Positions 5,819 to 43,628 of a stretch of DNA of 64,000 nt are shown one piece after another. Made by a program: the position numbers and the translations under genes. Source of the stretch: a virus; IMG/VR virus record IMGVR_UViG_3300034200_001896, positions 21,764-85,763 of that record, one strand, 5' to 3'. Every line of letters starts with the position of its first letter. The first letter of the stretch is position 1. The notes beneath the pieces are model-generated. The model had not been told where the DNA came from. It was given only the letters and a program-made list of their open reading frames with translations, and did no database searches.

Positions 5819-6814
5819 ATGATTGATTACGCTGATGTTATTGTTGACTTGGCTTATGGTGATTCCGGTAAGGGAAAAGTAACGCACTTACTTAGTAAGA
5901 GTGGTGAATATACACATTGTATTAGGTACAATGGGTCGAATAATGCAGGCCATACAATCTATCATGAGGGTAAAAAGATTGTAACACATTCAATTCCTAC
6001 AGGGGTTGTGCATGGTGTCAAGTCTATTATTGGCCCCGGTTGTGTAATGAATGTTAAGCAATTCTTTGATGAACTTAAGGAGTTGCAAGATGCCGGTATT
6101 AACACTGACGGTCTTGTATATATTGCAAAGAACGTTCATATCATCACAGAAGAGCACTTGCAAGAAGATAGACAAGATGCTAAGATAGGTACAACGAAGC
6201 GAGGCAACGGTCCAGCATATCGTGATAAGTACGCTAGGAAAGGAATTCGCGCAGAACAGATTCCAGAATTACAAAACTATTTAATAGACATATATGAAGA
6301 GCTTCATAGTGACAATACAAGATGTCGCATCCTTTTTGAAGGGGCTCAAGGATTTGGTTTGGATATCGACTTTGGTGATTATCCTTATTGCACTAGCTCC
6401 ACATGCACAGTTGGCGCTGCTGTTGCTAACGGCGTTCCTCCAAGCAAAATTAGGAATGTATGGGGAATAACTAAAGTATATGAGACATATGTTGGTGGTA
6501 AAAAGTTTGAACCTGATGAACCTATATTTAAACATATTCGTGAACTTGGTGGTGAATATGGTGCCACAACTGGTCGTCCTCGTCAATGCAATTGGATAAA
6601 TACAGCTCTATTACGCAAAGCTGCCAGAATCAACGGTGTTAATCGTGTTGTGTTTAATAAGGCAGATATCCTTCGCAAGATTAATCAATGGAAGGCATAT
6701 GATGTAAATGGTAATCTTATTAACTTCCAAGATGAAGAGCTAATGAAACAATGGATGCAAGAAGTATTACCAGATGTAAAGATTTATTGGAGTGATTCAC
6801 CCGATAAATTGTAA
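5819..6814 (+). CDS. purA: Compact adenylosuccinate synthetase (PurA/PurZ superfamily)
   Basis: 331 residues, about 100 shorter than bacterial PurA and close to phage PurZ in length. Ligates aspartate to a 6-oxopurine nucleotide using GTP. Visible motifs: DLAYGDSGKGK (P-loop; the catalytic Asp before Ser is kept, whereas the usual GDEGKGK has Glu there), RYNGSNNAGHT, IGTTKRGNGPAYRDK (nucleotide site), LFEGAQGFGLDID, YPYCTSSTCTVG, and GATTGRPRQCNW (aspartate loop). YPYCTS is reminiscent of PurZ, which makes the precursor of 2-aminoadenine, but retained Asp and aspartate loop fit ordinary PurA. Substrate (IMP or dGMP) cannot be decided from sequence. Own promoter upstream. Confidence 0.85.
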   Translation: MIDYADVIVDLAYGDSGKGKVTHLLSKSGEYTHCIRYNGSNNAGHTIYHEGKKIVTHSIPTGVVHGVKSIIGPGCVMNVKQFFDELKELQDAGINTDGLVYIAKNVHIITEEHLQEDRQDAKIGTTKRGNGPAYRDKYARKGIRAEQIPELQNYLIDIYEELHSDNTRCRILFEGAQGFGLDIDFGDYPYCTSSTCTVGAAVANGVPPSKIRNVWGITKVYETYVGGKKFEPDEPIFKHIRELGGEYGATTGRPRQCNWINTALLRKAARINGVNRVVFNKADILRKINQWKAYDVNGNLINFQDEELMKQWMQEVLPDVKIYWSDSPDKL

Positions 6815-7220: not shown

Positions 7221-7249
7221 TTGCAAATCTGCCGCCCACCTGATACAAT
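7221..7249 (+). promoter_or_regulatory. Promoter overlapping the terminator hairpin
   Basis: TTGCAA (7221-7226), 17 bases, TACAAT (7244-7249). The -10 box forms the loop and one arm of the hairpin at 7233-7259. Predicted transcripts would start just downstream and lead into the gene at 7278. Confidence 0.5.
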
Positions 7250-7263
7250 CAGGTGGGCGTTTT
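7233..7263 (+). terminator. Rho-independent terminator
   Basis: Perfect 12-bp stem CGCCCACCTGAT / ATCAGGTGGGCG with a 3-base loop followed by TTTT. Ends the 6912 gene; overlaps the promoter of the next one. Confidence 0.8.
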
Positions 7264-7277
7264 GCATTGGAGATACA

Positions 7278-7733
7278 ATGACTGAAAACAAAACTAACAT
7301 TTTAAAAGTTGCATTTCCTAATTTTATTCGTGAGAGTTTTTATATTGAATGTGGTAATGGTTGGTTTGATATTATTGCAGAGGTTTGTCAATTTATTGAA
7401 TCAAAAACAAAATATTGCCACGCTCAACAAATTAAAGAAAAGTTCGGCCTACTCAGAATCTATTTCGATTGTGATTACGATGAAAATGGTGAACCATTAA
7501 CCGATAGAGATACAATGGAAGAAATATATTCCTTTATTAATAAAAAAGAAAGCGAAAGTAAAAACATATGTGAAGATTGTGGTATAAAGCTTGTAGAAGA
7601 TAACAGGGCTAAGAAAGAACATCTTGGTTATTGGATTGCAAATATCTGTATGGATTGTCTTGATAGAACAAATCGGGAAGCATCAGAAAGATTAGAAAAA
7701 AAGATTTATAAGACCCTTAAAGAAAAGCCATGA
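7278..7733 (+). CDS. Zinc-binding hypothetical protein heading the SH3-like array
   Basis: 151 residues from the ATG at 7278 (GGAGATACA precedes it; upstream in-frame codons run through the terminator and are excluded). C-x2-C (CEDC, about residue 99) and a later C-x2-C (CMDC, about residue 126) form a likely zinc ribbon; the N-terminal half has GNGWFDIIAEVCQFIE and KEKFGLLRIYFD. The stop overlaps the next start by ATGA, so it is the first gene of the polycistronic array. Function unknown. Confidence 0.8.
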   Translation: MTENKTNILKVAFPNFIRESFYIECGNGWFDIIAEVCQFIESKTKYCHAQQIKEKFGLLRIYFDCDYDENGEPLTDRDTMEEIYSFINKKESESKNICEDCGIKLVEDNRAKKEHLGYWIANICMDCLDRTNREASERLEKKIYKTLKEKP

Positions 7734-7981
7734 GTGAATTTAAATTAGGAGACTTAGTTGAATTCATCCCAGAAAACTTTGATTATCCAAATTATACATA
7801 TCGCTTAATAGGTATTGGTTATATAGAACAAATTACAGAAGATAATATTTATTTCGTTTATTGCGGTAAAGTTATAAAACAACAAATGAAAAACTTTGCA
7901 GAACTAGAATTAAAAGATAAAACCTTTTCTTTTACGGAAGAAATAATGAGGATAATATGCAGGAAGATAAATTCAAAGTAG
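7730..7981 (+). CDS. SH3-like array member 1 (divergent)
   Basis: 83 residues. Has the family opening FKLGDLVEF and a second strand GIGYIEQI, but lacks the VEWYG core, having YFVYCGKV at that place. Starts in an ATGA overlap with the preceding gene. First of about 20 consecutive paralogues, and among the most diverged. Confidence 0.8.
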   Translation: MSEFKLGDLVEFIPENFDYPNYTYRLIGIGYIEQITEDNIYFVYCGKVIKQQMKNFAELELKDKTFSFTEEIMRIICRKINSK

Positions 7982-8250
7982 GAGACTTGTTAGAATTTTG
8001 TACAGAAAAGCAGCAGCTATGGAATCACGATGACTTGATTTATGAAGGTTACGGAATGGTTGTTTCTATTGAGCCGGGAGAACATATAGATGAAATGATA
8101 TATACAGTTGATATTTATAAAGGCACAGAAACAAGTATAAAGGCTAATGCCGATATATCTGGATTTAAGTTTAAACTTTACGAGTCACAAATTCATCATG
8201 ATATGAGGTTACTAAATGCGGGAACTAAAAATAAAACCAGAGATAGGTAA
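7957..8250 (+). CDS. SH3-like array member 2
   Basis: 97 residues: FKVGDLLEF, a longer insert, GYGMVVSIE, then YTVDIYKG in place of VEWYG. The start lies 25 bases inside the end of member 1, with GAGGATA just upstream, so translation is coupled. The C-terminal helix is longer and ends in basic residues. Confidence 0.8.
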   Translation: MQEDKFKVGDLLEFCTEKQQLWNHDDLIYEGYGMVVSIEPGEHIDEMIYTVDIYKGTETSIKANADISGFKFKLYESQIHHDMRLLNAGTKNKTRDR

Positions 8251-8554
8251 ATTATATAAATTCCGAGAAGATAATCGTGAAGCACTGTTAAAAAAATATA
8301 GTCACCATTATACTGGCTTGCTTTTATGTATTCAGACAGATATAATAAATGATATAAGCGTTCCAGAATCTGTAAAAAATTGGGTTCAACATCCTAATCC
8401 TATATATCAATTTGAAGTTTATAACTGCGTACAGATATTTGCACAAATAGATTTTTTCGGTAGAAAAGAAATAATTATTAAGTCTCCTTTGTATTTAACT
8501 CTTTTTGAACTAAACGATATGATAGAGGATGCATATGGCAAGAAAGAAACATAA
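8216..8554 (+). CDS. SH3-like array member 3 (very divergent)
   Basis: 112 residues, the longest in the array. IGKLYKF stands where GDLV is expected, followed by GLLLCIQTD and YQFEVYNC. IGKLY links it to the IGKLF subgroup at 15.4-18.9 kb. Begins 35 bases inside member 2. Confidence 0.7.
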   Translation: MRELKIKPEIGKLYKFREDNREALLKKYSHHYTGLLLCIQTDIINDISVPESVKNWVQHPNPIYQFEVYNCVQIFAQIDFFGRKEIIIKSPLYLTLFELNDMIEDAYGKKET

Positions 8555-8744
8555 AATTGGTGATTTAGTTTTATGCACTCCACAAGAAGAAGATGTTCGG
8601 TTTGTTTTTGGAATCATAAAAAGCTACGACCGTCAATTTTACTTTGTCGATTGGACCGATGGTAATCATGACACGGAACCTTATTCTTGGCACGAAATTC
8701 AACACTGGAAAGAGATATTACAAAAACATGTTAAAGGTCGGTGA
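8535..8744 (+). CDS. SH3-like array member 4
   Basis: 69 residues from the ATG at 8535, chosen over the ATG two codons earlier because GAGG sits at better distance. HKIGDLVLC, VFGIIKSY and YFVDWTDG are the three core strands. Overlaps member 3 by 20 bases. Confidence 0.8.
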   Translation: MARKKHKIGDLVLCTPQEEDVRFVFGIIKSYDRQFYFVDWTDGNHDTEPYSWHEIQHWKEILQKHVKGR

Positions 8745-8955
8745 TTTAATAATGAATAAGTTTGGTAATCTTGGAATGATAACCAGTTTAGTTTATCATC
8801 CAACTATTAAAAAATATAATAGTGGTTATGTTGAGTGGTATCCATATAATCCAAAACAAGGTAAAATTAATTTATCTATTTCTAAACTAGAAGAATATAG
8901 AGATAACTTTACTGGTTATATGTTTTTAGAAAAACGCGGGGCACGGGTAGAATGA
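8728..8955 (+). CDS. SH3-like array member 5
   Basis: 75 residues from the ATG at 8728; the open frame extends 28 codons further upstream but the family start LKVGDLIMN fixes this one. NLGMITSLV and GYVEWYPYN follow. Overlaps member 4 by 17 bases. Confidence 0.8.
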   Translation: MLKVGDLIMNKFGNLGMITSLVYHPTIKKYNSGYVEWYPYNPKQGKINLSISKLEEYRDNFTGYMFLEKRGARVE

Positions 8956-9191
8956 AAAAACGCGAAGCGCCTAAAAAAATTTTTCCTCCCGGCTCACTCA
9001 TCGCCATGCGTGATAGTAAATTAATAGGTATGATAGTAGAATATGACTACGATTCCAACCTCCATGATTGGTATCGTGTTGAATGGTTTGGTGCGAACGG
9101 CGAAATTGGATGGATGGAAACCCTAACATCACACGAAATAAAGATATACACCCGTGAATATAAGCAATTGCGTAAAGACCTTGGCATCTAG
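8952..9191 (+). CDS. SH3-like array member 6
   Basis: 79 residues: a basic extension KKREAPKKIFPP, then GSLIAM, LIGMIVEY and YRVEWFGANGEI. ATGA overlap with member 5. Its last codons contain the -35 box of the promoter that drives member 7. Confidence 0.8.
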   Translation: MKKREAPKKIFPPGSLIAMRDSKLIGMIVEYDYDSNLHDWYRVEWFGANGEIGWMETLTSHEIKIYTREYKQLRKDLGI

Positions 9192-9208
9192 AAAGACTAT
9201 GGTATCAT
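9181..9208 (+). promoter_or_regulatory. Internal promoter of the SH3 array, predicted leaderless
   Basis: TTGGCA (9181-9186, inside the end of member 6), 16 bases, TATCAT (9203-9208), then six bases and the ATG at 9215. This is the only real intergenic gap in the array (23 bases) and divides it into two operons. Confidence 0.55.
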
Positions 9209-9214
9209 GTATCT

Positions 9215-9409
9215 ATGAATCAGTTCCTTGGACACTTGGTAATGAATTATGCTTACAGGTTAGGAATGGTTATCTATACAGATATAGATAATGGTTGGCA
9301 TACGGTTGAATGGTTGGGCGGCAACATAGAAATCGCCAGTTATCCTACATTTTCAATAACCAATTTTATCAGGACATACGAAAATTATAAGGATGAAAAC
9401 AAGCTATGA
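9215..9409 (+). CDS. SH3-like array member 7
   Basis: 64 residues. GHLVMN replaces GDLV; then RLGMVIYTD and HTVEWLGGNIEI. The only array member not overlapping its predecessor; the start is six bases after a -10 box, fitting leaderless translation. Confidence 0.8.
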   Translation: MNQFLGHLVMNYAYRLGMVIYTDIDNGWHTVEWLGGNIEIASYPTFSITNFIRTYENYKDENKL

Positions 9410-9603
9410 ACGAAAGCGAACTTTATCGTGTTGGAGAATTGGTGCATTCCCGCCATGCAGGATATGGAATAATTACAAGTGTATACCAACACGGTGCAAC
9501 TATCTATTGGTTTGAACTTAAGAAATATAGTCCCGAAGCATTTCATTGGGTAGCAACGTTTAAAAAGGATTTGTATAATAAATTACGGGGTGAAGAAGAA
9601 TGA
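9406..9603 (+). CDS. SH3-like array member 8
   Basis: 65 residues: YRVGELVHS, GYGIITSV and ATIYWFEL (Tyr-Trp instead of Glu-Trp). ATGA overlap on both sides; GGGGTGAAGAAG near its end serves as ribosome site for member 9. Confidence 0.8.
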   Translation: MNESELYRVGELVHSRHAGYGIITSVYQHGATIYWFELKKYSPEAFHWVATFKKDLYNKLRGEEE

Positions 9604-9806
9604 AATACGCAATCGGTGACCTTGTGGCGTTTGGTTATAAAATCGGCATGATAACCAATTATGATGTTAAAGATAAAACATATCAAGTTGAATGGGCGGC
9701 AAATCGCTTAGAGCTTATTCCAGAGGAACGTGTTGGTGCCCTACGCGAACACTTTGTGACACTCAGGAATTTGCTAAAGCTATCAGGATATTCTAATGGA
9801 ATTTAA
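9600..9806 (+). CDS. SH3-like array member 9
   Basis: 68 residues: YAIGDLVAF, KIGMITNYD, YQVEWAANRLEL, then a C-terminal helix LREHFVTLRNLLKL. ATGA overlap upstream. A clean example of the family layout. Confidence 0.85.
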   Translation: MKYAIGDLVAFGYKIGMITNYDVKDKTYQVEWAANRLELIPEERVGALREHFVTLRNLLKLSGYSNGI

Positions 9807-10014
9807 GATTGGTGATTTGATAGCGGTGGAAACAATAAACTCTTATCATAAAACAAGTAAAATAAATTTAGGAATGATTGTTGAAATTATATCAAATAGC
9901 GATACTCCTTATCGTGTAGAATGGTATGGATTACAAGTGAACCGTCCAGTATACATGCGACAAAGCATTGAACATATGCGTAGAACTTATATAAATTTTC
10001 GTAAAACAATATGA
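9796..10014 (+). CDS. SH3-like array member 10
   Basis: 72 residues: FKIGDLIAV, a 14-residue variable loop, NLGMIVEII, YRVEWYG, C-terminal RRTYINFRKT. Overlaps member 9 by 11 bases. Confidence 0.85.
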   Translation: MEFKIGDLIAVETINSYHKTSKINLGMIVEIISNSDTPYRVEWYGLQVNRPVYMRQSIEHMRRTYINFRKTI

Positions 10015-10220
10015 ACTTTAAGATTGGTGACTTGGTAGCAACTCCGCAATGGACATTGCATGGCGATAAAACGTGCTTGGGCATGATTGTTGCCAGAAAC
10101 ACAAGCAGTTGGAAGGTAGATTGGTATGGAATAGAAGTGGAATTTTCTTGGTATACACCAGATGATATAAAACTATTTCGTAATAATTATTTAAAGTTGC
10201 GTAAGGAAAATGGAATTTAA
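10011..10220 (+). CDS. SH3-like array member 11
   Basis: 69 residues: FKIGDLVAT, KTCLGMIV, WKVDWYGIEVE, FRNNYLKLRKE. Most similar to the next gene, with shared DLVAT and KTCLGM, so probably a recent duplicate. ATGA overlap with member 10. Confidence 0.85.
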   Translation: MNFKIGDLVATPQWTLHGDKTCLGMIVARNTSSWKVDWYGIEVEFSWYTPDDIKLFRNNYLKLRKENGI

Positions 10221-10416
10221 ACTTGGTGATTTAGTTGCCACAGATGCTTGGACACCAGAAGGATATAAAACATGCTTAGGCATGCTTGTATATAGAAGAG
10301 ATGATTTATATTGGAAAGTTGATTGGTATGGTTGTTATGTTAAAACGCCTTGGTATTTACCATATGAATTAAAACCGATGCGTGAAAAATATTTAGAATT
10401 ACGTGACAACTTATGA
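10210..10416 (+). CDS. SH3-like array member 12
   Basis: 68 residues: FKLGDLVAT, KTCLGMLV, WKVDWYGCYV, MREKYLELRD. Near-duplicate of member 11; variation is concentrated in the loop after DLVAT and in the last third. Overlap 11 bases. Confidence 0.85.
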   Translation: MEFKLGDLVATDAWTPEGYKTCLGMLVYRRDDLYWKVDWYGCYVKTPWYLPYELKPMREKYLELRDNL

Positions 10417-10634
10417 AATACGGTGAACATTACATAGGCCACATGGTTGGTTATAGAGAAGACGACCGCTTTTCTATTGGCATGATTGTTGGATATGATG
10501 AAGATATTCCGCATGTTCCATATCGTGTTGAATGGTATGGTGAATATAGGGGAACAAAATTGGTTAATTATACGTTAGCACAAATAATGTTTTACATGGA
10601 CGAGTACAATAAATGGACGAAGAAGATATCCTAA
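10413..10634 (+). CDS. SH3-like array member 13
   Basis: 73 residues: YIGHMVGY (His for Asp as in member 7), SIGMIVGYD, YRVEWYGEYRG. ATGA overlap upstream; its end is overlapped 22 bases by member 14. Confidence 0.85.
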   Translation: MKYGEHYIGHMVGYREDDRFSIGMIVGYDEDIPHVPYRVEWYGEYRGTKLVNYTLAQIMFYMDEYNKWTKKIS

Positions 10635-10831
10635 CACGACCAAAAGTTGGCGATATGGTCATGGACATGGAAAATTATGGCATGATTATAGAACAGATTG
10701 GTAGCAAGTTCCTAGTTGAATGGTATGGCCGGATGCGTTATGCTTATCGCTATGATGTTTCAACGGTACGTTTGATGCGGCAAGACTTCTTGTATTATAA
10801 AAAACATGGCAGGCATCCATTGTCAATGTAA
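10613..10831 (+). CDS. SH3-like array member 14
   Basis: 72 residues: PKVGDMVMD, NYGMIIEQI, FLVEWYGRMRY, MRQDFLYYKK. Very short loop between first and second strand, showing which segment tolerates length change. Confidence 0.85.
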   Translation: MDEEDILTRPKVGDMVMDMENYGMIIEQIGSKFLVEWYGRMRYAYRYDVSTVRLMRQDFLYYKKHGRHPLSM

Positions 10832-10833
10832 AT

Positions 10834-11082
10834 ATGAACTATATTCCACGTATTGGCGACTTAGTGTTATATGAGTCTCTTCATGGCAAATCTACTCTTG
10901 GAATAATTAAGGGCATATATATCTATCCTTCGGATTTAGAAAATATACATCCAGATGATTTTGTTGGCAATCTTTACCGTATACTTTGGATAACCGAGAA
11001 CGATGAAGCAGGATATATTATAGATAGGGTAAAGGAATATAGACAGAATTATTTAAGATGGAGAAAAAATAATGGTTTATGA
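10834..11082 (+). CDS. SH3-like array member 15
   Basis: 82 residues: PRIGDLVLY, TLGIIKGIY, long insert, YRILWITEN, YRQNYLRWRK. Begins two bases after member 14 ends. Confidence 0.85.
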   Translation: MNYIPRIGDLVLYESLHGKSTLGIIKGIYIYPSDLENIHPDDFVGNLYRILWITENDEAGYIIDRVKEYRQNYLRWRKNNGL

Positions 11083-11302
11083 ACCACAGGTTGGTGATTT
11101 GCTAGCGGTTGAAAACGAAAATTCTCAAATTGTGTTGGGAATGATATACAAAAAATATAAAAAGGGTGGACGGACAGATTACTATACGGTAGAATGGTTT
11201 GACGAAACAACGTCATATGAATACAACATTGGCGACATAGATACATTTAGAATACAATTTGTAAAATGGCGAGACAGTGAATGCATCAACCTCCATACAT
11301 AG
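11072..11302 (+). CDS. SH3-like array member 16
   Basis: 76 residues: PQVGDLLAV, VLGMIYKKY, YTVEWFDETTSYEY, FRIQFVKWRD. Overlaps member 15 by 11 bases. Confidence 0.85.
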   Translation: MVYEPQVGDLLAVENENSQIVLGMIYKKYKKGGRTDYYTVEWFDETTSYEYNIGDIDTFRIQFVKWRDSECINLHT

Positions 11303-11499
11303 GTGAATTGCTTGCTGTCCATGACTATAAAAAAGATTATATTCTTGGAATGATTGTAGACATATGTGATGATGGTGATTTTCCATACGTTATAGATTGG
11401 TATTACAAAGACGCATCTGTTGTTGATTCAGCTTATACAAGTTTAGAAGATGTGCTACTGTATCGTAAACGTTTTCGGGAACTAAAAAAGAAACTATGA
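11281..11499 (+). CDS. SH3-like array member 17
   Basis: 72 residues: YIGELLAV, ILGMIVDIC, YVIDWYYKD, YRKRFRELKKK. Overlaps member 16 by 22 bases. Confidence 0.85.
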   Translation: MHQPPYIGELLAVHDYKKDYILGMIVDICDDGDFPYVIDWYYKDASVVDSAYTSLEDVLLYRKRFRELKKKL

Positions 11500-11687
11500 A
11501 CATAAATATTGGCGACCTTGTGTTACAAAACGGCAATAACCTTGGTATGATTATTGGTGCATTTGATGGTCAATATATAGTTGAATGGTATGGCAATGAT
11601 GATGTAACGCCATACAAGTTTAATTATTCGCCGTTTATCACCGAAAGCTTTCGCAGAACATACATGAAATACAGGAAATGGATATGA
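11496..11687 (+). CDS. SH3-like array member 18
   Basis: 63 residues, the shortest: INIGDLVLQ, NLGMIIGAF, YIVEWYGND, FRRTYMKYRK. It is close to a minimal version of the domain. ATGA overlap upstream. Confidence 0.85.
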   Translation: MNINIGDLVLQNGNNLGMIIGAFDGQYIVEWYGNDDVTPYKFNYSPFITESFRRTYMKYRKWI

Positions 11688-11884
11688 AAGATTATATTCC
11701 AAAACTAGGTGATTTAATACTAAAGCATGTTGGTAAAGAATATATGATTGGAATGATTGTCGAAGAATATGCCTCCTCTTGGTCTGTGGAATGGATTGGT
11801 CGTGACCTCCTATATTCAGGATATACACAAACAGAATTGATGCATGCCAGACAATCTTTCCTAAAGTTTAAGAAAACCCTATGA
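11678..11884 (+). CDS. SH3-like array member 19
   Basis: 68 residues: PKLGDLILK, MIGMIVEEY, WSVEWIGRDL, ARQSFLKFKKT. Overlaps member 18 by 10 bases. Confidence 0.85.
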   Translation: MDMKDYIPKLGDLILKHVGKEYMIGMIVEEYASSWSVEWIGRDLLYSGYTQTELMHARQSFLKFKKTL

Positions 11885-12108
11885 AACATCCTATCACAAA
11901 AGTTGGTGCCCTTGTTGCCCACAAAACTAATCCACAAAGTGAATTCACCTTGTTTGGTCATGTGGTGGAGATAGTCCAGAACGATAGCTACCCACATGGT
12001 TATGGTTATAGGGTTATTTGGCACAACAATGATAGCGATGAATACGTTTACAACACGCGAGAAATAGATTACTATCTAGGTATAGTTGAGGAGTTGAAGA
12101 AACTATGA
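11881..12108 (+). CDS. SH3-like array member 20, FGHVVEI subtype
   Basis: 75 residues: TKVGALVAH, LFGHVVEIV, YRVIWHNN and EYVYNTREID. The FGHVVEI / VIW / YN pattern is shared with the next gene and, more loosely, with the one at 22197, defining a subtype. ATGA overlap upstream. Confidence 0.85.
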   Translation: MKHPITKVGALVAHKTNPQSEFTLFGHVVEIVQNDSYPHGYGYRVIWHNNDSDEYVYNTREIDYYLGIVEELKKL

Positions 12109-12356
12109 AAGCCCATGTCGGAAGTCTTGTTGCAGTTAAAATAACAGGGCTTCATGCGTTAAATAATGGCAGCAAAATAGTTGATGGTAGCAAACGCACA
12201 GGTTTATTATTTGGTCATGTGGTGGAGATAAAAGAGGGTAGCAAAAAGATTATTAAGCATTACCGTGTTATATGGGATAATGGTAACGAGTTTCTTTACA
12301 ATGATTATGAAATGGATACATATCTAAAAAACATACAGGATATAAAGAACAGTTAA
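12105..12356 (+). CDS. SH3-like array member 21, FGHVVEI subtype
   Basis: 83 residues: AHVGSLVAV, a basic insert with GSKIVDGSKRTG, LFGHVVEIK, YRVIWDNG and FLYNDYEMD. Last of the run; its stop shares one base with the next start (TAATG). Confidence 0.85.
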   Translation: MKAHVGSLVAVKITGLHALNNGSKIVDGSKRTGLLFGHVVEIKEGSKKIIKHYRVIWDNGNEFLYNDYEMDTYLKNIQDIKNS

Positions 12357-12829
12357 TGAGTACTACCTACCCACTACCCCACCACCCCCCCTCTACCCAT
12401 CTACTACTCCAGCAGGGGGAGATGGTCTATATGATAAGCGGGAGATTAAAGCGTGAAAGGATGAAAGGATATTTCACTACATATTCCTATATGGACCCGC
12501 AAGAAGTAGTGGACAACTTTATAGCTAATGATAGTGAAGCTGTAGCCAAACGTAAATCCACCGGGGAACTAATAAATATAAGTACCCATATGATTGGTTA
12601 TATCCTAAGCGATAGGAAGTATAGTGAACAACATGCTGTGATGCAAAGTCCCCTATTAATAGGTTATGATATCCGTTGGGAATATGCTCAGAGTAACGGG
12701 CATCATAATATCTTTGAAGATGAGGAAAGCATTGTGCCATTAAAAGACCTAATTATATTAAACCCAGAAGAATTAAAGGGTGAGGTCTTTAATGATGGTG
12801 GACCCAAGAAAGGTCAGCAAGCCGGATAA
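12356..12829 (+). CDS. Hypothetical protein closing the SH3 array operon
   Basis: 157 residues if started at the TAATG junction. The first 22 residues are odd (Pro/His/Leu-rich, from a C-rich stretch). A second ATG at 12431 has AGGGGGAG at good distance and may be the true start, giving MISGRLKRERMKG and about 132 residues. No motif recognised. Followed by a hairpin and U-rich tract near 12846-12885. Confidence 0.6.
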   Translation: MSTTYPLPHHPPSTHLLLQQGEMVYMISGRLKRERMKGYFTTYSYMDPQEVVDNFIANDSEAVAKRKSTGELINISTHMIGYILSDRKYSEQHAVMQSPLLIGYDIRWEYAQSNGHHNIFEDEESIVPLKDLIILNPEELKGEVFNDGGPKKGQQAG

Positions 12830-13381: not shown

Positions 13382-13474
13382 AATATCGCGGTGTGGGAGT
13401 CCGTGCTAGCCGCCATTATGGGTAAAAGGTCGGGAGTATATCAGACCTAGGCCCCCTGTCAAGGGAAAAGTGAT

Positions 13475-13536
13475 GTCACCCGCAGGTGACACCCCGAAAA
13501 CCTCTGCTTGCCAATATGGGGAGGGGGGTGTATTAT
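13475..13536 (+). promoter_or_regulatory. Operator-type promoter of the zinc-knuckle gene
   Basis: GTCAC-N6-GTGAC at 13475-13490, GAAAA tract, TTGCCA (13508-13513), 17 bases, TATTAT (13531-13536). Operator centre about -60. Confidence 0.65.
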
Positions 13537-13574
13537 GGGTACATCTTCAACGGCGAACCACGGAGAGAAAAACA

Positions 13575-14165
13575 ATGGCATGGAAAGACGGCAAGCGTAC
13601 AGTGATGTGCCGACGGTGTTATAGTTATGGGCATAATATGCGGTCCTGCCCTACAATGTCTCCAGAAATGAAGGCTATGTATAAGGATGGAGATAGGGCC
13701 CGCAAGTGCTCCTACTGTTCCGAGAAGGGTCACACCAAACGCAAGTGTGAGAAGCGAACCAAAGACATAGCAGAATACGCTGCCGAGAATAAGAAGTATC
13801 GGAAGGCTTATCTTGATGCTATGGTTCAGCATGGTCTGTCCATTGGTTCTCTTGTCACCCCCATGGGGGCACGTGGTGAAAAGGATTTGGGTGACATTAG
13901 CCCAGAATATATTGGCATGGTGACACACATTGAATGGAAAGACATTCAATATCGTCGTCGTTCCAATCGTCCTATCCAAGCTAAACGGTTGGGCGAACAA
14001 GAGAATAACTGGAATAATGATATGTGGTTGGGTAGTCCGCCAATCAATAGCAAGGATTATGAAAGCTGGGGCAGATGTCAAGTATTGTCCCGCCGTAATG
14101 ATATCCTGTCTCATGTTCCCGCTGATTGGTTGGATGGATTGAGCGGGGCAGAGGAGTTCTTCTAA
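13575..14165 (+). CDS. Two CCHC zinc knuckles fused to an SH3-like family domain
   Basis: 196 residues from the ATG at 13575; the open frame runs upstream through the promoter, so earlier starts are excluded. Residues 12-25 (CRRCYSYGHNMRSC) and 43-56 (CSYCSEKGHTKRKC) are perfect C-x2-C-x4-H-x4-C zinc knuckles, which bind single-stranded nucleic acid in known proteins. From about residue 91 the family core appears: LSIGSLVTP, a loop, YIGMVTHIEWKD. This is the only member with an added recognisable domain. It suggests the small paralogues also act on RNA or DNA, but that is inference. Confidence 0.8.
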   Translation: MAWKDGKRTVMCRRCYSYGHNMRSCPTMSPEMKAMYKDGDRARKCSYCSEKGHTKRKCEKRTKDIAEYAAENKKYRKAYLDAMVQHGLSIGSLVTPMGARGEKDLGDISPEYIGMVTHIEWKDIQYRRRSNRPIQAKRLGEQENNWNNDMWLGSPPINSKDYESWGRCQVLSRRNDILSHVPADWLDGLSGAEEFF

Positions 14166-15335: not shown

Positions 15336-15346
15336 TGCATGACATT

Positions 15347-15380
15347 GCGGGGGAGGTTGAATGACTCCCCCGCTTTTGTT
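15347..15380 (+). terminator. Rho-independent terminator after the MoxR-like gene
   Basis: GCGGGGGAG / CTCCCCCGC stem with nine-base loop followed by TTTTGTTG. Confidence 0.8.
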
Positions 15381-15408
15381 GTATGTCTTTGCCTAGCCGC
15401 CCAAATAT

Positions 15409-15711
15409 ATGACAAAACTGGAACAAGAGTATAGAAGCAATATTGGCAAGTTATTTGTTCACCGTGATAGACAATGGACAGGAGCAGCTAAAGGTTGGGT
15501 GTTGGTAGGTGATTTGGTAATGATTGAGAAGGTGGAGAAACAGGGAGGATGGTATCACTATCACATGGAGATTATCAAACGCAATCTAGATAATGTGCCA
15601 GATATAAAAGATTCTAGAAATAAGCGTATTGTATCTTGCCGAGAGTTTCACAGGCACAGCGAATCCCCCCTGTCACTCTTGGGTGACACGGAAAACAAGG
15701 AGGTTGCATAA
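15409..15711 (+). CDS. IGKLF-subgroup small protein
   Basis: 100 residues. Opens with LEQEYRSNIGKLFVHRDRQW, then a middle strand VLVGDLVMIEKVE and YHYHMEIIKRN. The pattern E-x2-Y-x3-IGKLF recurs at 17187, 17547 and 18665, and IGKLF occupies the position of IGDLV, so these look like a diverged branch of the SH3-like family. The last codons contain the operator of the next promoter (GTGAC at 15683). Confidence 0.75.
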   Translation: MTKLEQEYRSNIGKLFVHRDRQWTGAAKGWVLVGDLVMIEKVEKQGGWYHYHMEIIKRNLDNVPDIKDSRNKRIVSCREFHRHSESPLSLLGDTENKEVA

Positions 15712-15731
15712 ATCTCAGGATGGGGTACTAT
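15672..15731 (+). promoter_or_regulatory. Operator-type promoter of the VWA gene
   Basis: GTCAC-N6-GTGAC (15672-15687), GAAAACAAGGAGG, TTGCAT (15704-15709), 16 bases, TACTAT (15726-15731). Lies partly inside the preceding coding region. Confidence 0.65.
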
Positions 15732-15761
15732 GTATCCATAACTCGCTGATGGAGAAGCACA

Positions 15762-16958
15762 ATGGCTAACGAGACTGAGCAGTTCGACCTTGACCGTTAT
15801 ATCTACAATCTCTTGCAGAACGAGCCGTTCTTTGCAGAGATTTCCCGCCATGTTGAGAAACGTTCCAGCACCGCAATCCCTACCGCTGGTGTGCGTATCA
15901 CCAAGGAGGGACAGTTTGAAATGATGTATAACCCTGCCTTCTTCCAGAAGCTTACCCGTGAGCAGCGGGCAGGTGTTATCAAGCATGAGTTTTATCATTT
16001 GGTTTTCGGTCACGTCACTGACCGTATGCCTGATGGTAAGATGTCTAAGAAGTGGAATATTGCAACTGACCTTGCAATCAATAGTCATATCAAGGATGAA
16101 CTGCCCTCAATGGCTTGCATCCCCGGTGTTGGTCCCTTCAAGGATTTGCCGTTGTTTGAATCGTCTGAGTGGTATTATAACAATCTGCCAAAGCAAGACG
16201 AAAAGAGCGGCAAGGGATTGGGTGAGGGTTCTCCTGATGGTGGTGGTGAGGGTGAATCTGATTCCTTCGACGACCATTCCCAGTGGGGTGAGAACGCAGA
16301 GAACCTTGACCCCGGATTGCGTGAACTCGCCAAGGAACGTCTGCGTGAAATGATGCGAAGCGCAGCAGAGGAGGCCAACAAATCCTCTAATGGTTGGGGT
16401 TCTGTCACTCATAATATCCGCAAGGAGATTATGGACCGTATCTCTGGCAAGATTGATTGGCGTGCGGTGCTGCGCTACTTCATCAAGACCTCTCAGCGTT
16501 CTGCAAAGACTAGCACGGTTAAGCGTATCAACAAGCGTTACGCTTACATCCATCCCGGTCAGAAGGTGCAGCGTCATGCTAAGATTGCCATTAGCATTGA
16601 CCAGAGCGGTTCTGTCTCGGATGAAATGCTGGAAGCTTTCTTCTCTGAACTAAACAACCTTGCAAAGATTGCCACGTTTACTGTGGTACCCTTTGATACG
16701 GAGGTTGATGATAACCTTGTTTATGTTTGGAAGAAGGGAATGTCTCGCAGGAAGGAACGTGTTAAGTATGGCGGAACTGACTTTGACGCTCCAACCAAGT
16801 ATGTTAATGATAAGGGGTTCGATGGACATATAGTGCTTACAGATATGCAGGCACCAAAGCCTATCACTAGCAAGTGCCAGCGTATGTGGATGACTACTAA
16901 AGATTGTATGTCGTCGGCCCCTTTTAAGACTCATGAGCGGGTAATCCCTGTTGAATAA
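15762..16958 (+). CDS. VWA-domain protein with N-terminal putative metallopeptidase domain (DUF2201-like)
   Basis: 398 residues. The N-terminal part has HEFYHLVFGH (about 72-81), a zinc-metallopeptidase-type HExxH, and the typical NIATDLAINSH. A Gly/Glu/Ser-rich linker (about 150-175) follows. The C-terminal domain is von Willebrand factor A-like with MIDAS DQSGSVS (about 282-288), later GGTDFDAP and VLTDMQ. MoxR ATPase plus VWA/DUF2201 pairs are a known chaperone-like arrangement. Here the ATPase is one gene upstream. The target is unknown; it could remodel a host complex or a virion part. Confidence 0.85.
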   Translation: MANETEQFDLDRYIYNLLQNEPFFAEISRHVEKRSSTAIPTAGVRITKEGQFEMMYNPAFFQKLTREQRAGVIKHEFYHLVFGHVTDRMPDGKMSKKWNIATDLAINSHIKDELPSMACIPGVGPFKDLPLFESSEWYYNNLPKQDEKSGKGLGEGSPDGGGEGESDSFDDHSQWGENAENLDPGLRELAKERLREMMRSAAEEANKSSNGWGSVTHNIRKEIMDRISGKIDWRAVLRYFIKTSQRSAKTSTVKRINKRYAYIHPGQKVQRHAKIAISIDQSGSVSDEMLEAFFSELNNLAKIATFTVVPFDTEVDDNLVYVWKKGMSRRKERVKYGGTDFDAPTKYVNDKGFDGHIVLTDMQAPKPITSKCQRMWMTTKDCMSSAPFKTHERVIPVE

Positions 16959-17102: not shown

Positions 17103-17180
17103 GTCACCTACGGGTGACGTAACGTGGGGGTGACACCCTCTAAAAAACCGGTTGCAAAAAGGCGAGAGCAGAAGTATTAT
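17103..17180 (+). promoter_or_regulatory. Double-operator promoter, predicted leaderless
   Basis: Perfect GTCAC-N6-GTGAC at 17103-17118 directly followed by GTAAC-N6-GTGAC at 17119-17134, then TAAAAAACCGG, TTGCAA (17152-17157), 17 bases, TATTAT (17175-17180), six bases, ATG. Confidence 0.65.
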
Positions 17181-20922: not shown

Positions 20923-21135
20923 ATGGAAATCAAAGAAGGTGACTTGGTTTGGAATAAATTTAATGGCTATGGGACGGTACTAAAGATTAGGATTGAATAT
21001 TGCGCCGTCTATTGGTATGCACCGACAAACCCAACAGAGAACACAAACTATCTTAAACCAGATTATCATGTAAAGTATGTAAGACAGTGGAAACGTAATG
21101 TTGAAGATAAATGCAGCGTTAGCTCAATTGGATAG
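20923..21135 (+). CDS. SH3-like family member between tRNAs
   Basis: 70 residues starting one base after tRNA-Glu: IKEGDLVWN, GYGTVLKIRI, CAVYWYAP, then a C-terminal WKRN helix. The last codons run into the tRNA fragment at 21113. Confidence 0.75.
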   Translation: MEIKEGDLVWNKFNGYGTVLKIRIEYCAVYWYAPTNPTENTNYLKPDYHVKYVRQWKRNVEDKCSVSSIG

Positions 21136-21605: not shown

Positions 21606-21809
21606 ATGACAACAATAAATGTTGGTGATTTGCTGCGTACTAATAGTTGGTTTGGTGTTGTGATGCGTATAGATGAAGGAAATAATTACGAAGAAACTGC
21701 ATATATGGTTCACTGGTTCTTCCCTGACAATAGAAATCCTATTAGTATGATAAACGGTTATAATGCATTAAAGTATAGAATTAATGTATTGACAATACTT
21801 GGAAAGTAG
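21606..21809 (+). CDS. SH3-like family member
   Basis: 67 residues: INVGDLLRT, WFGVVMRID, YMVHWFFPD, C-terminal LKYRINVLTIL. Last codons contain TTGACA. No clear promoter or ribosome site upstream. Confidence 0.75.
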   Translation: MTTINVGDLLRTNSWFGVVMRIDEGNNYEETAYMVHWFFPDNRNPISMINGYNALKYRINVLTILGK

Positions 21810-21970: not shown

Positions 21971-22186
21971 ATGTTAAAGACAAGAAAGCTGAATCTAGGT
22001 GACTTGGTTGCGGTAACAGAGCATAAAGACAATATCACTATTGGAATGATTGTAGAATTTGACGATGCTTATACTACCTACAAGATTGAGTGGTGCAACG
22101 GTAAACATATCTGGGCTAAGGCATCGTGGATAACTACCCAACAGTACCGTAACATTTTCCTTGACTGGAAGGCACAACTGTTATAG
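21971..22186 (+). CDS. SH3-like family member
   Basis: 71 residues: LNLGDLVAV, TIGMIVEFD, YKIEWCNGKHIW, FLDWKAQLL. The Leu-Asp-Trp codons near its end supply the TTGACT box used by the next gene. Confidence 0.85.
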   Translation: MLKTRKLNLGDLVAVTEHKDNITIGMIVEFDDAYTTYKIEWCNGKHIWAKASWITTQQYRNIFLDWKAQLL

Positions 22187-22196: not shown

Positions 22197-22436
22197 GTGA
22201 ACGACCCTTACATCGGCAAGTTGTTCCTCATGGATTGGCATCCTCCATCGTTCGGTGTTAACCCGACTCAGCGTATATATCTTTTCATGGTTGTCGGCAA
22301 GGGTAAAGAACATCATACCAAGCAAGGTTATATTTGTGAGTCCCTGACTTCGGGTAGGCAATATATCTACAACGAATACGAGATTATCTCAGGACTTGTG
22401 CAATACAAGCAATGGAAGGAGCAAAATAATGTTTGA
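22197..22436 (+). CDS. SH3-like/IGKLF family member with GTG start
   Basis: 79 residues from GTG 22197. DPYIGKLFLMD, LFMVVGKG, GYICESLTSGRQYIYNEYEI. YIYNEYEI matches the ends of array members 20 and 21 (YNTREI, YNDYEM), while IGKLF matches the other subgroup, so it bridges the two. The longer upstream frame overlaps the previous gene and is less likely. Confidence 0.7.
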   Translation: MNDPYIGKLFLMDWHPPSFGVNPTQRIYLFMVVGKGKEHHTKQGYICESLTSGRQYIYNEYEIISGLVQYKQWKEQNNV

Positions 22437-22635
22437 TATCCGCGAAGGTGATAGTTTGTTGGGTTATAGTATTGCTACCAAGGATTATATTGTTGGCATC
22501 GTTACTGATATTAAGCTTGACGCAATTGCCCGTAAGCAGTATAATGTTCATTGGGCTGATGCACAAGTTGGATGGTTGGACCATAACACCGCTGTACGTT
22601 TGCGTGAGAAATATCTTGACTTCCGCAACAAGTAG
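22429..22635 (+). CDS. SH3-like family member, DIREGDS type
   Basis: 68 residues: DIREGDSLLG, IVGIVTDIK, YNVHWADAQ, LREKYLDFRNK. Overlaps the previous gene by eight bases and has AAGGAG upstream, so it is translated in the normal way, unlike its neighbours. First of three related copies in a row. Confidence 0.85.
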   Translation: MFDIREGDSLLGYSIATKDYIVGIVTDIKLDAIARKQYNVHWADAQVGWLDHNTAVRLREKYLDFRNK

Positions 22636-22650: not shown

Positions 22651-22857
22651 ATGGATATCAAAATCGGTGACAGTGTTGCGTTCATTGGCAGTGTTGCATC
22701 CACTGGTAAATCTTTCAGCTACGTTGGCGTGGTGTCAAAGATATCTAACCATAACCCTCGTTATTGTGTTTCTTGGAATGACGGTACGGAAACTTACGAA
22801 GATAGTCCTGAGATTGCCATTTTCCGAAAACAATACCTTGACTTCCTCAACAAGTAG
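22651..22857 (+). CDS. SH3-like family member, DIKIGDS type
   Basis: 68 residues from the ATG seven bases after the -10 box: DIKIGDSVAF, YVGVVSKIS, YCVSWNDG, FRKQYLDFLNK. Duplicate of its neighbours on both sides; start and end are the most conserved parts at DNA level. Confidence 0.85.
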   Translation: MDIKIGDSVAFIGSVASTGKSFSYVGVVSKISNHNPRYCVSWNDGTETYEDSPEIAIFRKQYLDFLNK

Positions 22858-22872: not shown

Positions 22873-23085
22873 ATGGATATCAAAGTCGGTGACAGTGTAG
22901 CATTTAAGCCTAGGAAAACGTCTAACGAATACGATTTGGGAATCGTTGTAAATATAATTCCAAACAAAAATTACTGTGTAAAGATAATATGGAATGATGT
23001 TGCATTTCCCTCTAGTGAGACTGTTGAGTTAATGGCGGACGCTCTAGAGTTCCGTCAGATTTATCTTGACCTTCTCGCAAAGTAG
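22873..23085 (+). CDS. SH3-like family member, DIKVGDS type
   Basis: 70 residues: DIKVGDSVAF, DLGIVVNII, VKIIWNDV, FRQIYLDLLAK. Third tandem copy. Confidence 0.85.
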   Translation: MDIKVGDSVAFKPRKTSNEYDLGIVVNIIPNKNYCVKIIWNDVAFPSSETVELMADALEFRQIYLDLLAK

Positions 23086-30952: not shown

Positions 30953-31195
30953 ATGGAAAATCTCAATCTAATCGGACGTTTAATAGCCTTCCACACCAAT
31001 TTTGCAAGAACAAAAATAATATTGGGTGTAGTATCTGATACACGGATGGTGACATCAAAAAACTTATTTGGCTTTAAAAAACAAATAACAGAATATAAGA
31101 TTGTTTGGCAGGATAAGGAATATGACGATACATGGACAACAGAAAATGGCATTAAAACAGGCGCAGAAATATTAAATAACTATAAAAATTTATGA
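30953..31195 (+). CDS. SH3-like family member
   Basis: 80 residues: LIGRLIAFH, ILGVVSDTR, YKIVWQDKEYDD. Promoter TTGTTT-N16-CATACT lies about 30 bases upstream. ATGA overlap with the next gene. Confidence 0.8.
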   Translation: MENLNLIGRLIAFHTNFARTKIILGVVSDTRMVTSKNLFGFKKQITEYKIVWQDKEYDDTWTTENGIKTGAEILNNYKNL

Positions 31196-31452
31196 AAAAC
31201 TCATCCATCAAAGTAGGTGACCTTGTGCTTTGCAAGGCAAAAATAGACCCAAGTTATGATTTTGAAGATAAAAATATAAAACTTGTGATTGGGTGGATAA
31301 CAAAAAAAACTACAACTACTTTTATGGATGGTAAATTTACAATTTTCCATGTACAATGGAGCGACAAAGAAACAGATGGTGAATTAAAAGAGGAAGATGC
31401 ACTATCGGTACGTAATTTTTTCTTAAAAATGCGAAAGGAATGGGGTATTTAA
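31192..31452 (+). CDS. SH3-like family member
   Basis: 86 residues: IKVGDLVLC, LVIGWITKK, FHVQWSDKETDGE, C-terminal VRNFFLKMRKEW. Directly paired with the previous copy. Confidence 0.8.
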   Translation: MKNSSIKVGDLVLCKAKIDPSYDFEDKNIKLVIGWITKKTTTTFMDGKFTIFHVQWSDKETDGELKEEDALSVRNFFLKMRKEWGI

Positions 31453-31999: not shown

Positions 32000-32222
32000 T
32001 CCAATAGCAATTGGTGCTTTAGTAAAAGATAAAAGCACAAAACGCCTAGCAATCATTCTAGATAAAATGAGCACTAGCGAATGGGAGCGAACTGATAAAG
32101 ATAATGAATTCAATGCTGGAATAGTTTATGGCATGCAATTTATGGACGGAATAGGACCGTTTAAGACATATCGGTACGCTTATGAGGTAGAAGTACTAAG
32201 TCGAGGAAAGGAGAATGGATAG
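31983..32222 (+). CDS. SH3-like family member, IGALV type
   Basis: 79 residues from GTG 31983: AIGALVKDK, LAIILDKMS, YAYEVEVLSR. Overlaps the previous gene by 17 bases. Confidence 0.7.
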   Translation: MIKYRNPIAIGALVKDKSTKRLAIILDKMSTSEWERTDKDNEFNAGIVYGMQFMDGIGPFKTYRYAYEVEVLSRGKENG

Positions 32223-32409
32223 AAAGGTAATAGATTTTAAAATAGGTGACCTTGTTTACCTAAACATAGAAAATGGCGACGGTGGGATGGGGATGGTTAT
32301 AAGCGATATAGTTTATACGGAAATAGAGTTTTATTATGCTGTTTTCTCCATGCGGGAAAATAAAATCATAATTGCGTTCCCTTATGAATTGGAATTAGTA
32401 CGTGGCTAA
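32215..32409 (+). CDS. SH3-like family member
   Basis: 64 residues: FKIGDLVYL, GMGMVISDI, YYAVFSMREN, ELELVRG. AAAGGAGA upstream; overlaps the previous gene by eight bases. Confidence 0.8.
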   Translation: MDRKVIDFKIGDLVYLNIENGDGGMGMVISDIVYTEIEFYYAVFSMRENKIIIAFPYELELVRG

Positions 32410-33700: not shown

Positions 33701-33904
33701 ATGGCATTCCGTAGACCATGTTATGTAAAGGTAGGTGATTTAGTTCGTACCCGTGGAGATTTAGATATCTACGGATATGTTACATATATTGATGGTAACA
33801 GCGAAACTGGTGAATATTACGTAGAAATAGTTTTCGATGAGGACGCTGACCCATTGTATTTTTATGATGACCAACTGGAAGTATTAACGGTAATTAAAGA
33901 ATAA
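33701..33904 (+). CDS. SH3-like family member
   Basis: 67 residues from ATG 33701: VKVGDLVRT, IYGYVTYID, YYVEIVFDE, QLEVLTV. Earlier in-frame ATGs fall in the terminator and are excluded. Confidence 0.8.
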   Translation: MAFRRPCYVKVGDLVRTRGDLDIYGYVTYIDGNSETGEYYVEIVFDEDADPLYFYDDQLEVLTVIKE

Positions 33905-34131
33905 TGGAACATAACATAGGCGATTTGCTCCTTGCACACACCGTTGATGGTGGTATAATGTTTGGAATAATAACAAAGATAGATGAATCTTTATTTGACA
34001 AAAATTTTAACTTATACACCGTAACTTGGTTTCAAAAAAATAATATTCAAGATACCCGTGACTATACATACAACAACATAACTCGTTTGAAAAAAAATTT
34101 AGAAGATTATTTTAATAACGATAGGGTTTAA
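33904..34131 (+). CDS. SH3-like family member
   Basis: 75 residues starting in TAATGG: HNIGDLLLA, MFGIITKID, YTVTWFQKN, LKKNLEDYF. Confidence 0.8.
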   Translation: MEHNIGDLLLAHTVDGGIMFGIITKIDESLFDKNFNLYTVTWFQKNNIQDTRDYTYNNITRLKKNLEDYFNNDRV

Positions 34132-43454: not shown

Positions 43455-43628
43455 ATGAAACATAATATTGGCAATTTAGTTTATGATGGAACAAGTATTG
43501 GTTGGATTATAGAAGTTGGCCGTTCAGGATATTATCATATTGAGTTTTGTAATAACCAAAAAGGTTGGTATAGTGGAGAAGCAGTTAGCCTTCTAGTAGA
43601 AGCATTAAAATCAAAATTAAATAAATAA
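43455..43628 (+). CDS. SH3-like family member between tRNAs
   Basis: 57 residues: HNIGNLVYD, SIGWIIEVG, YHIEFCNNQ, C-terminal LLVEALKSKL. Starts 11 bases after tRNA-Ile; no clear ribosome site. Confidence 0.75.
   Translation: MKHNIGNLVYDGTSIGWIIEVGRSGYYHIEFCNNQKGWYSGEAVSLLVEALKSKLNK

What the first reader, a model, noticed from the sequence alone, without database searches (positions are those of the whole stretch)
7730..12356. Run of about 21 tandem paralogues of one tiny SH3/KOW-like protein
Nearly every ORF for 4.6 kb is a 63-112 residue protein with the same order: (I/V)GDLV, variable loop, GM(I/V)V, variable loop, Y-x-V-(E/D)-W-(Y/F), then a C-terminal helix with (F/Y)R..Y...R. Most start inside or in an ATGA overlap with the previous one. 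Core strands are kept while loops vary in length and sequence, as expected for a scaffold that is repeatedly duplicated and diversified against changing targets. I know of scattered GDLV-type phage proteins but not of such an array.
Basis: partly seen in the sequence, partly recalled or inferred. Interest (0 to 1): 0.92.

Follow-up and report, generated by a model that had tools for sequence, protein, structure and literature searches.

The report
Phage tandem array of SH3-barrel proteins
An uncultivated T4-like phage carries about twenty head-to-tail, strongly diverged copies of one small barrel-shaped protein at a fixed spot where its relatives carry 1, 8 or 21, which looks like a toolbox of binding proteins kept to deal with varied host factors, although what they bind is unknown.

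Summary
The array is real. Between 7730 and 12356, 20 of 21 consecutive ORFs belong to one protein family: 18 by profile search, and the first two by profile-profile comparison. ORF 8216-8554 does not match. Shuffled ORFs give no matches. AlphaFold2 gives a confident small SH3-like barrel plus C-terminal helix (pLDDT 90.7). The weak best structural matches are mostly Tudor, PWWP, MBT or KOW barrels.

At the same locus, with the same flanking genes, related phages hold 1, 1, 8, 18 (window) and 21 copies. Between the two closest phages, copies are gained, lost or replaced whole. The family is common in uncultivated T4-like phages, mostly within 20 kb of a MoxR ATPase/vWA-metallopeptidase pair, in runs of up to 16 elsewhere. 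It was absent from the three named isolates tested and matches no Pfam, PHROG or PADLOC family convincingly.

My best reading is a birth-and-death array of early-expressed, target-binding proteins for host takeover or counter-defence. The function is inferred. It is a new variant of a known kind.

The parts
7233..7259 (+). intrinsic terminator-like hairpin that separates the upstream gene from the array operon
   Evidence: 12 bp stem followed by TTTTGC
7281..7733 (+). conserved gene upstream of the array (about 151 aa, CxxC pairs, zinc-ribbon-like), syntenic in L110, L111, L112 and L113
   Evidence: weak DZR match for the L112 orthologue
7730..7981 (+). m01, divergent first copy, conserved in all syntenic relatives except L113
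   Evidence: hhalign 94% to the family; AF2 pLDDT 84.7, small beta-barrel, best weak PDB matches Sm/LSm
7957..8250 (+). m02, divergent copy
   Evidence: aligned with m01, profile comparison
8216..8554 (+).
   Evidence: no match; conserved in L110 12420-12758
8529..8744 (+). m04 array copy
   Evidence: E 2.8e-19; syntenic L004 copy only 58% identical with dS 1.26
8728..8955 (+). m05 array copy
   Evidence: E 3.4e-13
8952..9191 (+). m06 array copy, no orthologue in L004
   Evidence: E 4.2e-19
9181..9208 (+). internal sigma70-like promoter match, -10 TATCAT ending 6 nt before the ATG of m07; the TATCAT block is kept in L004 but stands before a different copy
9215..9409 (+). m07 array copy
   Evidence: E 8.4e-20
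9406..9603 (+). m08 array copy
   Evidence: E 3.0e-5; syntenic L004 copy 49% identical
9600..9806 (+). m09 array copy
   Evidence: E 8.4e-16
9796..10014 (+). m10 array copy, replaced in L004
   Evidence: E 7.9e-23
10011..10220 (+). m11 array copy; the structure-predicted copy
   Evidence: E 5.1e-25; AF2 pLDDT 90.7
10210..10416 (+). m12 array copy, 54% identical to m11, absent in L004
10413..10634 (+). m13 array copy
   Evidence: E 7.4e-20; dN/dS 0.04
10613..10831 (+). m14 array copy
   Evidence: E 1.3e-17
10834..11082 (+). m15 array copy
   Evidence: E 3.7e-18; syntenic L004 copy diverged, dS 1.27
11072..11302 (+). m16 array copy
   Evidence: E 1.7e-20
11281..11499 (+). m17 array copy
   Evidence: E 2.5e-18
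11496..11687 (+). m18 array copy
   Evidence: E 2.1e-19
11678..11884 (+). m19 array copy
   Evidence: E 2.5e-20
11881..12108 (+). m20 array copy
   Evidence: E 3.1e-6, second iteration
12105..12356 (+). m21 array copy
   Evidence: E 7.5e-5; 43% identical to m20
12356..12829 (+). conserved 157-aa gene that closes the array in L110, L111 and L112
14286..15335 (+). MoxR-like AAA+ ATPase, syntenic anchor near the family in relatives
   Evidence: PHROG 1297, E 8.4e-51; linkage
15762..16958 (+). vWA protein with N-terminal metallopeptidase-like domain (DUF2201), partner of the MoxR ATPase
   Evidence: Pfam DUF2201_N 1.6e-19 and DUF2201 4.3e-12
20923..21135 (+). dispersed family copy n01 (marginal)
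   Evidence: E 5.5e-4
21606..21809 (+). dispersed family copy n02
   Evidence: E 4.2e-5
21971..22186 (+). dispersed family copy n03, own promoter-like site with -10 ending 7 nt before ATG
   Evidence: E 3.2e-14
22429..22635 (+). dispersed family copy n05
   Evidence: E 6.5e-7
22651..22857 (+). dispersed family copy n06 with its own promoter cassette; -35 lies in the end of n05
   Evidence: E 1.2e-6
22873..23085 (+). dispersed family copy n07 with its own promoter cassette; -35 lies in the end of n06
   Evidence: E 3.2e-9
30953..31195 (+). dispersed family copy q01
   Evidence: E 1.1e-5
31192..31452 (+). dispersed family copy q02
   Evidence: E 1.6e-10
32215..32409 (+). dispersed family copy q04 (weak)
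   Evidence: E 2.2e-4, 3.5e-5
33701..33904 (+). dispersed family copy q06 (weak)
   Evidence: E 7.6e-6
33904..34131 (+). dispersed family copy q07
   Evidence: E 6.5e-10
43455..43628 (+). dispersed family copy r01, in a tRNA cluster
   Evidence: E 2.2e-5

Best explanation
The locus is a birth-and-death gene array of single-domain binding proteins. Each gene encodes one SH3-like (Tudor/PWWP/KOW-type) barrel with a C-terminal helix. Copies arose by old tandem duplication, and phages of this clade add, lose and swap whole copies at a fixed insertion point while keeping most resident copies under purifying selection. I infer that the proteins are made early in infection and that each copy binds a different host target, probably a protein or peptide, to neutralise or redirect it (host takeover or counter-defence). 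A set is then kept in the way bacteria keep polyimmunity loci. Shown here: homology, fold, array, turnover, purifying selection, fixed position, and host-type promoter-like sites in the same region. Inferred: early timing, target binding, and the counter-defence purpose.
For: Family and array. Fold. Copy number at one syntenic locus: L111 1, L112 1, L079/L113 8, window 18, L004/L110 21. Between window and L004, whose MoxR is 94% identical: 12 orthologues at 76-97% identity, 3 syntenic but strongly diverged copies (dS about 1.25 against about 0.4 for MoxR), 3 window-only and 6 L004-only copies, with no broken copies seen. Selection: dN/dS core 0.09, helix 0.17, loops 0.26, so the copies are used. 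Surface make-up is diverse, with pI 4.1-9.5 and mean net charge -0.8, which suits varied partners rather than one nucleic-acid ligand. Sigma70-like promoter sites with the -10 box a fixed 6-7 nt before the ATG occur in this region and before some copies. Polyimmunity loci show the same organisation: distantly related tandem paralogues, one message, number and type differing between strains (PMC3482391).
Against: No target, expression or phenotype data exist for any copy. No match to any defence family was found (PADLOC: one marginal hit). There is no sign of positive selection between orthologues, whereas an arms race might be expected to leave one. Individual Foldseek matches are weak (best E 0.19), so function cannot be carried over from the fold. 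Promoter matches are consensus hits, not mapped transcripts.
Confidence: 0.5

Rival explanations
1. The copies are nucleic-acid-binding modules of the KOW/PWWP/Tudor type that modulate phage or host transcription or translation, or coat phage DNA or RNA.
For: The best weak fold and sequence matches include PWWP bound to ssDNA, Spt5 KOW, NusG, L24 and eS4, and m01 resembles Sm/LSm.
Against: Charge is not consistently basic (mean net -0.8, pI 4.1-9.5; most array copies are neutral or acidic), no basic column is invariant, and it is hard to see why one phage would need about 30 versions.
Confidence: 0.2
2. The copies are exchangeable substrate adaptors for the neighbouring MoxR AAA+ ATPase and vWA-metallopeptidase pair, each bringing a different host protein to be remodelled or cleaved.
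For: 84 of 85 listed family matches in 13 large phage records lie within 20 kb of the MoxR gene, against 20.9 expected if spread evenly. In a scan anchored on the family itself, 17 of 23 loci with full flanks carry MoxR or vWA within 10 kb. The partner has metallopeptidase-like and vWA-like domains.
Against: Linkage may only mean that both lie in one accessory region. Six of the 23 loci have no MoxR within 10 kb. Many other phages carry related MoxR ATPases, and the pair has been proposed to act in virion assembly in jumbo phages (PMC7824862).
Confidence: 0.12
3. The array is mostly neutral or selfish accumulation by unequal recombination, with little function per copy.
For: Adjacent copies are more alike and copy number varies widely. 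A related phage may hold only one copy.
Against: All copies are intact and most orthologues have dN/dS well below 1 at dS about 0.1-0.9. Neutral copies would have decayed.
Confidence: 0.08
4. The copies are virion or assembly components (small decoration or scaffold proteins).
For: Upstream genes include tail-spike-like proteins, and MoxR-vWA has been linked to virion assembly (PMC7824862).
Against: Copy number from 1 to 21 at the same locus in relatives is hard to reconcile with a structural role. Several copies have host-type promoter sites, and the exact T4 late motif TATAAATA is not enriched (7 found, 11 expected) and does not occur on the + strand near the array.
Confidence: 0.06

Closest known systems
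Royal-family/SH3-like small barrels: PWWP, Tudor, MBT, chromo, KOW
   Same: Order of strands with GDLV, GxI and YxVxW motifs plus C-terminal helix; best weak matches by profile (NSD3 PWWP E 0.022, MPP8 chromo E about 0.03) and by Foldseek.
   Different: All PDB matches are above E 0.01; the b1-b2 loop lacks a conserved aromatic cage, and no chromatin context applies. Bacterial chromo-like domains are described as secreted and multidomain (PMC5906684); these copies start directly at the barrel, with no recognisable leader.
Polyimmunity loci of bacteria (SUKH and other immunity families)
   Same: Tandem arrays of distantly related paralogues, probably one message, number and type differing between close relatives (PMC3482391).
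   Different: Found here in a phage; no toxin partners seen; different fold and no relation to an immunity family (one member matches Imm72 at only E 0.007).
Zinc-ribbon expansion in Bacillus phage G (about 35 copies)
   Same: A precedent for a large lineage-specific expansion of a tiny single-domain protein in a large phage (PMC7824862).
   Different: Different fold; whether those copies form a tandem array was not stated in the passage read.
PHROG 1690, PHROG 9237, Pfam DUF1918
   Same: Best family-library matches of single members (E 2.3e-5, 1.4e-5 and 3.9e-3).
   Different: Only 1-3 of 117 members match; all are of unknown function; none covers the family.
African swine fever virus multigene families (MGF)
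   Same: Paralogue families in a large DNA virus whose members target host immune factors (abstract of PMC11980378; tandem arrangement from general knowledge).
   Different: Analogy only: eukaryotic virus, unrelated proteins.

Membership tests
SH3-like small beta-barrel fold | Strongly bent antiparallel barrel of about 60 residues | tested here: met
   AF2 of m11, pLDDT 90.7, strands 8-11, 22-29, 34-38, 47-48 and helix 50-67; the top 50 PDB matches are mostly small SH3-like barrels, though each is weak
PWWP/Tudor/chromo reader domain (Royal family) | Significant sequence or structure similarity to a known member | tested here: inconclusive
   Best E 0.022 by profile, 0.19 by Foldseek; the class is consistent but no single match is significant
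PWWP/Tudor/chromo reader domain (Royal family) | Conserved aromatic cage, including aromatics in the b1-b2 loop | tested here: not met
   b1-b2 loop columns 12-21 are at most 29% aromatic; the conserved aromatics are Y34, W38 and Y48. Position equivalence was judged from the alignment
Bacterial polyimmunity locus | Tandem, distantly related paralogues varying in number and type between close relatives | tested here: met
Bacterial polyimmunity locus | Members belong to immunity protein families and neutralise toxins | tested here: not met
   No convincing immunity-family match; neutralisation itself not testable
Known anti-phage defence families (PADLOC) | Match to a defence protein profile | tested here: not met
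   One marginal hit, E 0.0095, of 117 members
PHROG 1690 | Profile match over the family | tested here: not met
   2 of 117 members; in genomes only partial matches, E 2.6e-4 at best
Anti-defence protein | Restores phage growth on a host carrying a defence system | not testable with these tools
   Needs an experiment

The most novel reading that the evidence does not exclude
The array is a diversified adaptor set for the neighbouring MoxR AAA+/vWA-metallopeptidase machine: a phage-borne, modular system for remodelling or degrading chosen host proteins in which each tiny SH3-like barrel supplies one target specificity and phages swap copies to change the target list.
Probability: 0.09. Interest if true: 0.9.

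Novelty: new variant of a known kind. Interest (0 to 1): 0.62.

Why it matters
If the copies bind different host proteins, this is a phage counterpart of polyimmunity loci: a ready-made natural library of tiny (about 70 aa) scaffolded binders, with strongly conserved strands and variable loops. The syntenic series with 1, 1, 8, 18 and 21 copies makes the question 'what does copy number buy a phage?' directly testable. It would also give a function to a small-protein family that is abundant in uncultivated T4-like phages and not captured by curated family libraries.

Tried and rejected
Single-sequence searches of array copies in the phage collection and of one member in bacterial genomes found nothing. 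Degenerate-pattern scans with m09 and m11 found only the sister phage. The scan with the 157-aa downstream gene found nothing. The profile alignments were too variable for pattern scans. A second small paralogue family in the window (IGKLF type: 15409, 17124, 17547, 18650) was tested as part of the same family and rejected: no shared hits and hhalign probability 2.5%. ORFs 22197, 31983 and 32422 looked similar by eye but were not recovered by the profile, so I do not count them. Methyl-lysine reading was rejected because the cage is not conserved. The T4 late promoter motif TATAAATA is not enriched. Shine-Dalgarno sites occur before 7 of 20 starts against 9 of 133 other ATGs, a weak sign of real starts. 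Literature searches found no description of such a phage array; the library holds open-access papers only.
Full report
What was checked. The window is 64 kb of an 85.8 kb IMG/VR virus record. Every ORF in 6.5-13.8 kb was listed. Twenty ORFs from 7730 to 12356 carry the motif order (I/V)GDLV, GxI, YxVxW and, in most, a C-terminal helix. All are on the + strand and start with ATG, and 16 of 19 junctions overlap. One further ORF inside the run (8216-8554) is not a detectable member.

More than chance. A profile HMM built from 15 copies recovers the array at E 5e-25 to 3e-13. After iteration it finds 803 ORFs in 84 loci, against none among residue-shuffled ORFs and at most one on the minus strand. 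Self-matching of the seed copies is expected, but the other array copies, the dispersed copies and the copies in other phages are not in the seed. The broader 117-sequence profile finds 18 array copies and 11 dispersed copies in the whole record. The first two copies are linked by profile-profile comparison (94%).

Fold. AlphaFold2 with 117 sequences gives mean pLDDT 90.7 for m11: a short b1, a long b2, b3, a small b4 and an 18-residue helix. The closest solved structures are PWWP, MBT, SMN and TDRD3 Tudor and Spt5 KOW domains, none significant alone. Sequence profiles point the same way: NSD3 PWWP (E 0.022), MPP8 chromo, DUF1918, L24 and NusG. Divergent m01 also folds as a small barrel, nearest to Sm/LSm.

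Conservation. Across 117 sequences, G6 is invariant and G24 and W38 are nearly so. D7, L8, V9, I26, Y34, V36 and L53 are strongly kept, and these read as barrel core positions. Loops vary from 2 to 19, 4 to 19 and 1 to 12 residues. In this sample the helix extension (F/Y)R..Y...R is mainly a property of the window's own group (window, L004, L005, L006, L079). The wider family mostly ends in a short LEVISESR-like tail.

Comparison with relatives. A scan with the neighbouring MoxR ATPase gave 80 loci. Most hold family members, almost always on one strand, in runs of up to 21. Twenty records searched whole all hold 3-26 copies. Three named T4-like isolates (Flavobacterium phage immuto, Microcystis phage Mel-JY01, Synechococcus phage S-CAM4) hold none, and one uncultured 484 kb phage holds one clear copy. 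The terminase of the L079 phage is T4-type, at most 44% identical to isolates, so the clade has no close cultured member in that collection.

Copy number at one locus. The gene order purA-like, a roughly 92-aa gene, a roughly 150-aa zinc-ribbon-like gene, an m01-like copy (not seen in L113), the array, a 157-aa gene, a zinc-knuckle gene, MoxR, vWA is shared in whole or part by five phages. The number of array copies detected by the profile is 1 (L111), 1 (L112), 8 (L079/L113), 18 (window) and 21 (L004/L110). L111 and L112 have a purA product 90% and 89% identical to the window's, so the difference between 1 and about 20 copies arose within a fairly close group.

Turnover and selection. L004 is the closest relative (flanking DNA 86-90% identical). 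Twelve copies are clear orthologues at 76-97% amino-acid identity in codon alignment. Three sit at the same place but are only 49-58% identical with dS about 1.25, three times that of MoxR, so they were replaced or exchanged. Three copies are found only in the window and six only in L004. A promoter-like TATCAT block before m07 in the window stands before a different copy in L004, so whole copies enter or leave at gene boundaries. Pooled dN/dS for orthologues is 0.09 in the core, 0.17 in the helix and 0.26 in loops. The array is therefore maintained and not decaying, and loops are freer than strands, but no positive selection is visible. Neighbouring copies are more alike than random pairs (p=0.014 in the window, 0.0002 in L004), while the nearest relative of a copy lies in another phage in 162 of 179 cases. 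Most duplications are therefore old.

Regional context. In 13 large records, 84 of 85 listed matches lie within 20 kb of MoxR, against 20.9 expected if even (positions typed, and only the better matches are listed). Those records were chosen for having MoxR. An independent scan with a short family member found 56 loci, and 17 of the 23 with full 10 kb flanks carry MoxR or vWA. The family thus lives in one accessory region. The same region holds tRNA genes and HNH-like endonuclease genes (the HNH call is by eye). A homing endonuclease has been shown to drive segmental amplification of anti-defence genes in phage T6 (PMC13096335), which is a possible mechanism for copy gain here, untested.

Expression. 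A strong terminator-like hairpin precedes the operon. In the second cluster, copies n06 and n07 and the next gene each have a near-identical promoter-like cassette with TTGAC in the last codons of the previous copy and TATAGT 7 nt before the ATG. The promoter-plus-ATG pattern occurs 10 times in the window against 1.6 expected. Across relatives its -10 to ATG distance peaks at 6 nt (58 of 100 cases), which suggests host-RNA-polymerase promoters and leaderless messages. This supports, but does not prove, early expression.

Interpretation. Fold, diverse charge, purifying selection on intact copies and rapid turnover of whole copies fit a kit of binding proteins better than a structural or neutral array. 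I put 0.5 on host-directed binders (takeover or counter-defence), 0.2 on nucleic-acid binding, 0.12 on MoxR/vWA adaptors, and the rest on neutral, structural or unforeseen roles. Steps shown: family, fold, array, locus, turnover, selection. Steps inferred: timing, target class, purpose.

Limits. All relatives with the family are uncultivated contigs, several of them fragments. The host is unknown. Foldseek matches are weak, as is usual for 60-residue barrels. Copy counts depend on the profile threshold. The dN/dS method is a simple count (Nei-Gojobori type).

Noticed in passing
window 22590-23103: Three near-identical promoter-plus-start cassettes (64 nt, 73% identical) in which the -35 box lies in the last codons of one gene and the -10 box ends 7 nt before the next ATG. 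Across relatives the -10 to ATG distance peaks sharply at 6 nt, suggesting leaderless early messages in this phage clade.
   Followed up: partly
window 15409-15711, 17124-17534, 17547-17882, 18650-18949: A second, separate family of small paralogues with an (N/Y)xGKL(F/Y) start, four copies here and three each in L005 and L079. Not shown to be related to the GDLV family.
   Followed up: partly
window 14286-16958: MoxR AAA+ ATPase next to a vWA protein with an N-terminal metallopeptidase-like domain (DUF2201), a pair otherwise reported in jumbo phages and proposed to act in virion assembly.
   Followed up: partly
window 26584-26657, 27768-27841, 29183-29256: A 74-nt direct repeat with GTGTCAC...GTGACACC, 69-80% identical in three places; possible regulatory or mobile element.
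   Followed up: no
window 19974-21927 and 43284-47982: Fourteen tRNA genes; ORFs at 20287, 21119(-), 23838(-), 35554 and 46068(-) look HNH-type by eye (not profile-searched), as expected for homing endonucleases.
   Followed up: no
window 5819-6814: Adenylosuccinate synthetase homologue of only 331 aa (PHROG 1211, named for the 2-amino-type enzyme). Whether it serves diaminopurine DNA was not tested.
   Followed up: no
window 48890-63645 and L002 10368-11960: PhoH, glycosyltransferase, aminotransferase and nucleotide-sugar epimerase genes downstream, and a GroEL homologue upstream in the same record.
   Followed up: no
window 13470-14165: Zinc-knuckle protein (two CxxC-type knuckles) between the array and MoxR, syntenic in L110 and L111.
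   Followed up: no
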